Source of the DNA: Mycobacteriales bacterium
GTDB taxonomy: Bacteria; Actinomycetota; Actinomycetes; Mycobacteriales; SCTD01
DNA: 64,000 bases
NCBI GenBank assembly: GCA_030697205.1
Contig: JAUYQP010000047.1
Location: 62,001 to 126,000 of the forward strand
Direction: 5' to 3'
Below the pieces are notes generated by a model. That model worked only from the letters and a program-made list of their open reading frames with translations, had not been told where the DNA came from and searched no databases. How positions within the stretch are numbered: the first letter of the stretch is position 1; every line of letters begins with the position of its first letter. Shown here piece after piece: positions 52,338 to 52,895 of this stretch. Position numbers and translations under genes: made by a program.

Positions 52338-52399
52338 TGATCAACAGGCGGTGTGCACGCAACTCGCCGGCGCGTCGCGTGCGGACCCCCTGATGATCA
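52338..52399. repeat. Imperfect 23-bp inverted repeat with GATCAACAG core
   Basis: The left arm 52338-52360 and right arm 52377-52399 pair with about four mismatches, around a 16-nt loop. The right arm includes the chorismate mutase stop codon. The core is shared with 18000-18075, also between convergent genes. Confidence 0.65.
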
Positions 52400-52672
52400 A
52401 CCGCGGCAGAGGGTGAGCAGCTCCATCGCGATCGCGGCGCCGGGGCGGCCGAGGGCGTCGCTGTAGCCGCGGATCACCTCGACCTCGCGGACGTGCTGGT
52501 TGCCCCGCAGCCCCTCGACCGCGCGGCAGGCCTGGATCTGCTGGGACATCTCGACCCGGCGGGCGACGAGCGCCCGGATCTCGGCGTCGATCGCGTCCAT
52601 CTCGGCCCGGCCGGCGGACACGGTCGGGACGGTGCCGGTGACAGCGGGGGTGTCGATCACGGTGACGTTCAC
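52397..52672 (-). CDS. Chorismate mutase, AroQ type
   Basis: The product is 91 aa. It converts chorismate to prephenate, the branch to Phe and Tyr. The helical AroQ fold is visible: MDAIDAEIRALVARRVEMSQQIQACR (helix 1, with the Arg of the active site), then RGNQHVREVEVIRGYSDALG and a final helix IAMELLTLCRG. The ~20-residue N-terminal extension is Thr/Val-rich. GTG 52672 has GGAGGAG seven bases upstream. A 17-codon leader frame and a set of alternative hairpins precede it. Confidence 0.85.
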   Translation of the reverse strand: MNVTVIDTPAVTGTVPTVSAGRAEMDAIDAEIRALVARRVEMSQQIQACRAVEGLRGNQHVREVEVIRGYSDALGRPGAAIAMELLTLCRG

Positions 52673-52699
52673 GGTGGTGCTCCTCCTCGTTCGGGGTCC

Positions 52700-52766
52700 G
52701 ACCCGGGAGGCGCCCGGGTCGCTGACCCGGGGTGTGCGCGGCTAGGAGCCGGACCCGTCCCGGGTC
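52700..52766 (-). promoter_or_regulatory. Candidate attenuator of chorismate mutase (four alternating complementary 8-mers)
   Basis: On the minus strand, in order: GACCCGGG (52766-52759, inside the leader frame), CCCGGGTC (52731-52724), GACCCGGG (52720-52713) and CCCGGGTC (52707-52700). Segments 1:2, 2:3 and 3:4 can each pair perfectly over 8 bp, with loops of 3 nt (2:3) and 5 nt (3:4). The geometry is that of a trp-type attenuator. Confidence 0.55.
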
Positions 52767-52795
52767 TCGGCGAAGTAGCGGCGCTGGTGCGTCAT
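52742..52795 (-). CDS. Putative 17-residue leader peptide (aromatic codons)
   Basis: The frame reads MTHQRRYFAETRDGSGS and stops 69 bp before chorismate mutase. ATG 52795 follows TAGGGT by 6 nt, like the leaderless genes elsewhere in the window. Adjacent Tyr and Phe codons lie just upstream of hairpin segment 1, where a stalled ribosome would cover it. The peptide itself probably has no other function. Confidence 0.55.
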   Translation of the reverse strand: MTHQRRYFAETRDGSGS

Positions 52796-52895
52796 GCGCC
52801 CACCCTAGGCCACCCGCGCCGCCGCCGTCCCGGCTTTCCCGACGAGGTGGCGTCACCGATCACCACGTTCCGGGACAGACCGGACCGCGCGGCGG

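What the first reader, a model, noticed from the sequence alone, without database searches (positions are those of the whole stretch)
52673..52795. Ribosome-mediated attenuator-like leader in front of chorismate mutase
Seen: a 17-codon frame (ATG 52795) with a TAGGGT -10 six bases upstream and adjacent Tyr-Phe codons. It is followed by four alternating perfect complements (GACCCGGG / CCCGGGTC, twice) at 52766-52759, 52731-52724, 52720-52713 and 52707-52700. Segment 1 lies inside the frame just after the aromatic codons. Segment 2 can pair with 1 or 3, and 3 with 2 or 4. Known: the trp attenuator has this 1-2-3-4 logic, and I recall a Phe-sensing leader (aroR) before aroF in Corynebacterium. 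Inference: low charged Tyr/Phe tRNA stalls the ribosome over segment 1, 2:3 forms, and the mutase is expressed. Weak point: only one Tyr and one Phe codon, and no U-tract after 3:4.
Basis: partly seen in the sequence, partly recalled or inferred. Interest (0 to 1): 0.82.

Follow-up and report, generated by a model that had tools for sequence, protein, structure and literature searches.

The report
Aromatic-sensing attenuator before chorismate mutase
Just before a gene for making phenylalanine and tyrosine lies a tiny leader gene that probably lets the ribosome sense whether those two amino acids are scarce; the same switch, absent from the RNA-family library searched and not found in the papers I could search, sits before this gene across much of the actinobacteria.

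Summary
In 5000 dinucleotide shuffles the four-segment pattern arose once and the frame twice.

Attenuator reading: supported, with the segment roles shifted by one. In 69 of 80 CM genes sampled from the order, a short, probably leaderless frame ending ...FFYGYRxPVPV sits upstream. Three RNA helices covary: a hairpin inside the frame, an antiterminator and a terminator. Of 80 loci fetched by leader DNA alone, 77 have CM downstream.

Leader codons follow the pathway: unique CM leaders carry Phe and Tyr (Trp in 6 of 110), whereas leaders before DAHP synthase in other families mostly add Trp (9 of 11). Nothing in Rfam matches; a 2005 survey reported no Phe/Tyr attenuators in Actinobacteria.

The window copy is diverged: two aromatic codons, no U-tract, invisible to the order-wide model. 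Expression data are needed. Known mechanism; apparently undescribed family.

The parts
52802..52807 (-). -10 element TAGGGT; implies transcription starting at or next to the ATG (leaderless leader frame)
   Evidence: A and T of the hexamer are invariant columns in 25 related leaders. Start site inferred, not mapped.
52742..52795 (-). leader frame MTHQRRYFAETRDGSGS with adjacent Tyr (52777-52775) and Phe (52774-52772) codons
   Evidence: homologous frames upstream of CM in 69 of 80 sampled genes.
52752..52766 (-). hairpin inside the frame, GACCCG (52766-52761) / GGA / CGGGTC (52757-52752); counterpart of the conserved GGGTACCGG-nnn-CCGGTACCC hairpin
   Evidence: pairing probability 0.98 in free RNA; family helix covaries.
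   Evidence: the family donor:terminator-5' helix covaries.
   Evidence: no U-tract follows.
   Evidence: self -18.9 vs permuted -17.9 +/- 0.28 kcal/mol, 0 of 2000.
52680..52688 (-). Shine-Dalgarno-like GAGGAGGAG of the CM gene
52397..52672 (-). chorismate mutase, AroQ/CM_2 type, 91 aa, GTG start

Best explanation
The 52807-52673 region is a diverged member of a conserved actinobacterial attenuator that makes chorismate mutase expression depend on charged Phe and Tyr tRNA. Transcription starts at the ATG, and a ribosome translates the 17-codon leader behind RNA polymerase. When Tyr- or Phe-tRNA is short, the ribosome stalls at the TAC-TTC pair, opens the hairpin inside the frame, and frees the following bases to pair with the terminator's 5' arm (segment 2). 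Segment 3 is then free to pair with segment 4 and the gene is expressed. Shown by sequence comparison: the frame, its aromatic codons, and covariation of the three main helices in the family. Inferred: the start site, stalling, the switch itself, and in this genome whether the OFF state acts by terminating transcription or on translation.
For: Conservation: leader frame upstream of CM in 69 of 80 sampled genes of the order; 77 of 80 loci fetched by leader DNA alone have CM 84-273 nt downstream, the other three matches lying within 225 nt of a locus end. Covariation: frame hairpin 90.6% paired against at most 86.6% in 1000 between-species swaps, one pair with five types; hairpin plus terminator 90.3% vs 84.2 +/- 0.7% shuffled; antiterminator self energy -19.0 vs -16.4 +/- 0.31 kcal/mol permuted, and 80.2 vs 74.3 +/- 1.3% of cells paired; terminator -25.3 vs -21.5 +/- 0.29. 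The negative control, terminator 5' arm with segment 4, shows no signal (636 of 2000). Codon logic: CM leaders have Phe and Tyr, Trp in 6 of 110; DAHP synthase leaders have Trp in 9 of 11, Fisher p = 2e-8 uncorrected for relatedness. In leaders of family f33 (probably Streptomyces) a 4-base loop shifts the frame after the hairpin, so the peptide changes while the hairpin stays. Window: best hit in 64 kb of the family-only model is 2:3 in register with the stop; folding with a ribosome stalled at the Tyr or Phe codon shifts the window from 2:3 to 3:4 (0.05 to 0.41-0.67).
Against: The order-wide model does not find the window leader, and the family model does so only weakly (E = 0.41 over 64 kb) and not in a whole-genome search. 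Only two aromatic codons remain and no U-tract follows. Equilibrium folding keeps the terminator in nearly all relatives tested even with a stalled ribosome, so the antiterminator would have to win by forming first. Segment 1 overlaps the estimated footprint of a ribosome stalled at the Phe codon. Occlusion of the Shine-Dalgarno site changes little between states (0.49 vs 0.55). No expression data.
Confidence: 0.77

Rival explanations
1. In this genome's family the switch has become a translation attenuator, or relies on Rho: the hairpins no longer end transcription but control access to the Shine-Dalgarno site of the mutase gene.
For: No U-tract in the window or in family members L004-L008, unlike many other families. 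GCCTCC just after segment 3 can pair with the GGAGG of the Shine-Dalgarno site when 2:3 forms (free RNA). In L004, L006 and L007 CCTGG/CCAGGA pairing covers the Shine-Dalgarno site.
Against: Computed access to the site hardly changes between states in the window (0.49 vs 0.55) and the relatives. Actinobacterial attenuator leaders without U-tracts have been reported (LeuL1 and TrpL2 in Streptomyces lividans, PMC8079986).
Confidence: 0.3
2. The window copy is a decayed leftover of the family attenuator: the leader is still read, but too few aromatic codons and no terminator remain for regulation.
For: Two rather than three or four aromatic codons; the order-wide model misses it; no U-tract.
Against: The four 8-mers are still perfect complements and the hairpin inside the frame is intact, which shuffled sequence almost never gives. 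The CM gene is the only one in the genome.
Confidence: 0.15
3. The leader makes an arrest peptide: its FFYGYRxPVPV sequence stalls the ribosome by itself when an aromatic compound is present.
For: The peptide end is strongly conserved in much of the order.
Against: Residues after FFY change together with compensated RNA pairs (YR/VP, HR/VS, TR/AP), and in family f33 the frame shifts after the hairpin while the hairpin stays. The window has lost the motif.
Confidence: 0.05
4. The complementary 8-mers are GC-rich chance repeats and the frame is an accident.
For: A G+C-rich genome; 6 of 2278 stretches in the window show some four-segment pattern.
Against: 1 of 5000 shuffles for the segments, 2 of 5000 for the frame, none for frame plus three segments; the same anatomy in the same place in relatives.
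Confidence: 0.03

Closest known systems
AroR leader before aroF (DAHP synthase) in Corynebacterium glutamicum (Neshat et al. 2014, read through PMC11802643 and PMC4046766)
   Same: Actinobacterial leader peptide with Phe-Tyr-Phe codons controlling an aromatic-pathway gene by ribosome stalling.
   Different: Different gene (DAHP synthase, not chorismate mutase). DAHP synthase leaders in three other actinobacterial families did match the CM-leader model.
pheL-pheA attenuator of Escherichia coli and the trp attenuator
   Same: Leader codons for the end product and mutually exclusive terminator and antiterminator; pheA also encodes a chorismate mutase activity.
   Different: E. coli leaders have a ribosome-binding site and a classical U-tract (general knowledge). 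Here the frame is probably leaderless and the first hairpin lies inside the frame. No Rfam match in the window or in relatives' leaders.
Leaderless amino-acid attenuators of Actinobacteria (leuL, trpL, ilvL in Streptomyces lividans, PMC8079986; ilvB1 in Mycobacterium tuberculosis, PMC13236596)
   Same: Short frames, leaderless in the S. lividans cases, coupled to alternative hairpins; some reported without a U-tract.
   Different: None of those listed senses Phe/Tyr or precedes chorismate mutase.

Membership tests
Ribosome-mediated amino-acid attenuators (trp/phe type) | Short translatable frame with codons for the end product of the gene it precedes | tested here: met
   Window: adjacent Tyr-Phe. 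Family: Phe and Tyr in all 110 unique CM leaders, Trp in 6 (leaders were selected by motifs containing F/Y).
Ribosome-mediated amino-acid attenuators (trp/phe type) | Mutually exclusive terminator and antiterminator helices | tested here: met
   Both covary in relatives; in the window the perfect complements are present, but their switching is only a computed shift.
Ribosome-mediated amino-acid attenuators (trp/phe type) | Intrinsic terminator with U-tract between leader and gene | tested here: not met
   Window: no U-tract after 2:3 or 3:4. Many relatives in other families have one. Filed as works-like-an-attenuator; the transcription-termination mode is not claimed for the window.
Ribosome-mediated amino-acid attenuators (trp/phe type) | Response to charged tRNA level | not testable with these tools
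   Needs reporter or RNA data.
The CM-leader family described here | Leaderless-type frame directly upstream of AroQ-type CM, hairpin after the aromatic codons, terminator-like hairpin 3' of the stop | tested here: met
The CM-leader family described here | Recognised by the order-wide covariance model R1 | tested here: not met
   No hit at 52.7 kb; the family-only model R2 gives a weak, correctly placed top hit.
C. glutamicum aroR | Precedes aroF (DAHP synthase) | tested here: not met
   The window leader precedes CM; this genome's type I DAHP synthase gene (L313) shows no aromatic leader frame close upstream.
T-box, riboswitches and other Rfam families | Match to a curated covariance model | tested here: not met

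The most novel reading that the evidence does not exclude
A widespread, undescribed actinobacterial attenuator family whose leader codons follow the branch point it guards (Phe/Tyr before chorismate mutase; Phe/Tyr/Trp before DAHP synthase), and which in the window's family has moved from transcription termination to another output while keeping the four-segment switch.
Probability: 0.45. Interest if true: 0.68.

Novelty: new member of a known kind. Interest (0 to 1): 0.56.

Why it matters
A survey of RNA control of amino-acid genes in Actinobacteria found no conserved Phe or Tyr elements (PMC1262725), and Rfam 15 has no matching family. If the switch is real, chorismate mutase, the first step committed to Phe and Tyr, is under direct tRNA-sensing control in much of an order that includes Rhodococcus, Mycobacterium and many antibiotic producers (Pseudonocardiaceae), and in at least one further family. 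The contrast between CM leaders (Phe/Tyr) and DAHP synthase leaders (usually plus Trp) is a ready-made test of how leader codons are matched to pathway branch points, and the families without a U-tract allow a test of how an attenuator changes its output.

Tried and rejected
Covariance model R1's best hit in the own genome outside the window (G000:C13:2880-2973) is a tRNA followed by a terminator, hence a false positive; weak hits of R1 (E above about 1e-4) were therefore not counted as evidence unless the downstream gene was read. Shine-Dalgarno occlusion as the general output: folding gives no consistent difference. Equilibrium folding of stalled complexes in relatives: the terminator wins nearly everywhere, so thermodynamics alone neither proves nor excludes the switch. 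An exact DNA pattern over the class gave no match because it was too strict, also missing known members. A single-protein scan of genome contigs found no relatives and the protein alignment was too diverse for that scan. My first orientation of minus-strand loci was wrong and was redone. An own type I DAHP synthase leader was looked for and not found. D'Halluin et al. 2023 on M. tuberculosis uORFs is not held, so earlier description there cannot be excluded.

Full report
What is there. The spacing of the -10 to the ATG implies a leaderless message. Shuffles of the intergenic region give the four segments 1 time and the aromatic frame 2 times in 5000, never the frame with even three segments.

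Relatives. Using the CM protein, I fetched the upstream DNA of CM genes from related genomes. A short frame with a GTG or ATG start placed 6-8 bases after a -10-like element, ending in ...FFYGYRxPVPV or close variants, stands upstream of CM in 69 of 80 sampled genes of the order (candidates missed by the stricter pattern were read by eye, and two doubtful ones left out). Most of the clear absences are in one family (f8). A DNA pattern for the leader alone, run over one genome per species, fetched 80 loci, largely Pseudonocardiaceae with a few Rhodococcus and Mycobacterium; 77 have CM 84-273 nt downstream and in the other three the match lies within 225 nt of an end of the fetched stretch. So the leader was found only with CM in that scan. 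Because the pattern fixes part of the hairpin, those loci were not used for covariation.

Structure. Three helices are supported by covariation on sequences not selected for them: the hairpin inside the frame (GGGTACCGG-nnn-CCGGTACCC in canonical members; 90.6% of cells paired against a maximum of 86.6% in 1000 swaps; one position uses UG, CG, AU, UA and GC), the terminator (duplex energy -25.3 against -21.5 +/- 0.29 kcal/mol when partners are permuted), and an antiterminator between the loop plus 3' arm of the frame hairpin and the 5' arm of the terminator (-19.0 against -16.4 +/- 0.31; for example GGACTCCGG with CCGGAGTCC, GGTCCGCGG with CCGCGGTCC). Column counts on a 32-sequence alignment agree. 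Related sequences inflate such statistics; the size of the effects and the several independent pair types argue against that as the whole explanation.

Peptide or RNA. After the FFY codons the amino acids change together with compensated RNA pairs (YR..VP, HR..VS, TR..AP). In the leaders of family f33 (probably Streptomyces) the hairpin loop has four bases instead of three, so the peptide continues in another frame (YGNRPTGCHGRAA) while the hairpin is kept. Selection is therefore on the RNA and on the aromatic codons, not on a functional peptide.

Beyond the order. A covariance model from 32 leaders (R1) searched in 198 genomes of the class gave strong hits outside the order. In f33 they precede CM. 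In f31 and f22 they precede the AroF-type DAHP synthase, with leaders such as MQRNFWRFYGYRP... and MRTAWSFWYGDGP..., which add Trp; in f41 DAHP synthase leaders have Phe and Tyr only. Across unique peptides Trp occurs in 6 of 110 CM leaders and 9 of 11 DAHP synthase leaders (Fisher p = 2e-8, not corrected for relatedness, and largely resting on two families). Chorismate mutase leads to Phe and Tyr only; DAHP synthase feeds all three. DAHP synthase was named from its sequence by reading, not by a family search. I did not survey upstream regions of other genes, and R1's weak hits include a tRNA-plus-terminator false positive.

The window copy. R1 does not find the window copy. Read against relatives, the window has Tyr-Phe-Ala where the family has Phe-Phe-Tyr, keeps the hairpin in the frame, and lacks the U-tract, as do its family members L004-L008. 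Thermodynamic folding of the leader downstream of a ribosome moves the window from frame hairpin + 2:3 (free RNA) to 3:4 when the ribosome stands at the Tyr or Phe codon (2:3 0.89 to 0.50 and 0.31; 3:4 0.05 to 0.41 and 0.67).

How it most likely works. Enough Phe and Tyr: the ribosome reaches the stop, 2:3 forms, expression is low. Shortage: stalling at TAC-TTC opens the frame hairpin, the sequence after the aromatic codons pairs with segment 2, 3 pairs with 4, expression rises. Whether OFF is a terminated transcript or blocked translation in this family is open: there is no U-tract, but Shine-Dalgarno occlusion is not convincing either. In relatives equilibrium folding nearly always leaves the terminator in place even with a stalled ribosome, so the antiterminator would need to form before the terminator's 3' arm is made, which is plausible for co-transcriptional folding but unproven.

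Known or new. Ribosome-mediated attenuation is classical, and AroR of C. glutamicum (Phe-Tyr-Phe before aroF) is the nearest described case. A 2005 survey of Actinobacteria found no conserved RNA regulatory structure before Phe or Tyr operons; the S. lividans reannotation lists eight leaders, none aromatic except Trp; Rfam has no match; my searches of the held literature found no attenuator before CM in Actinobacteria. Subscription papers were mostly out of reach, so priority is not established. I file it as a new member of a known kind.

Noticed in passing
L289, L291, L292, L293, L294, L298-L301, L307: DAHP synthase (AroF-type) genes outside the order carry a related leader with Phe, Trp and Tyr codons, e.g. 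MQRNFWRFYGYRP... and MRTAFWFWYGDGP...
   Followed up: partly
L003 (G028), 374-833: The CM closest to the window's by sequence (50%) has a leader with many aromatic codons, MTGRAYPRFVFAYAYAFAGTGPVFAR.
   Followed up: no
L196, L198, L200-L202, L204, L205, L241, L246: Some genera of family f8 have lost the leader; in several the CM gene itself seems to start close to its promoter.
   Followed up: no
L313 (G000:C7): The genome's own type I DAHP synthase gene has no aromatic leader frame close upstream and looks leaderless itself (GAGACT then ATG).
   Followed up: partly
G000:C13:2880-2973 (L256): A tRNA directly followed by a GCCCCGAGG/CCGGGGC terminator scores 26 bits with the leader model; a false positive to beware of.
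   Followed up: yes
L038 (CAJCJE010000173.1): A contig labelled Candidatus Melainabacteria carries a leader and CM like those of Pseudonocardiaceae; probably a mislabelled or contaminating contig.
   Followed up: no
L163-L173, L175 (family f1): Several genomes of the window's own family show only weak CM matches lying inside long open frames (mostly about 380-790 aa); whether these are fused mutases was not checked.
   Followed up: no
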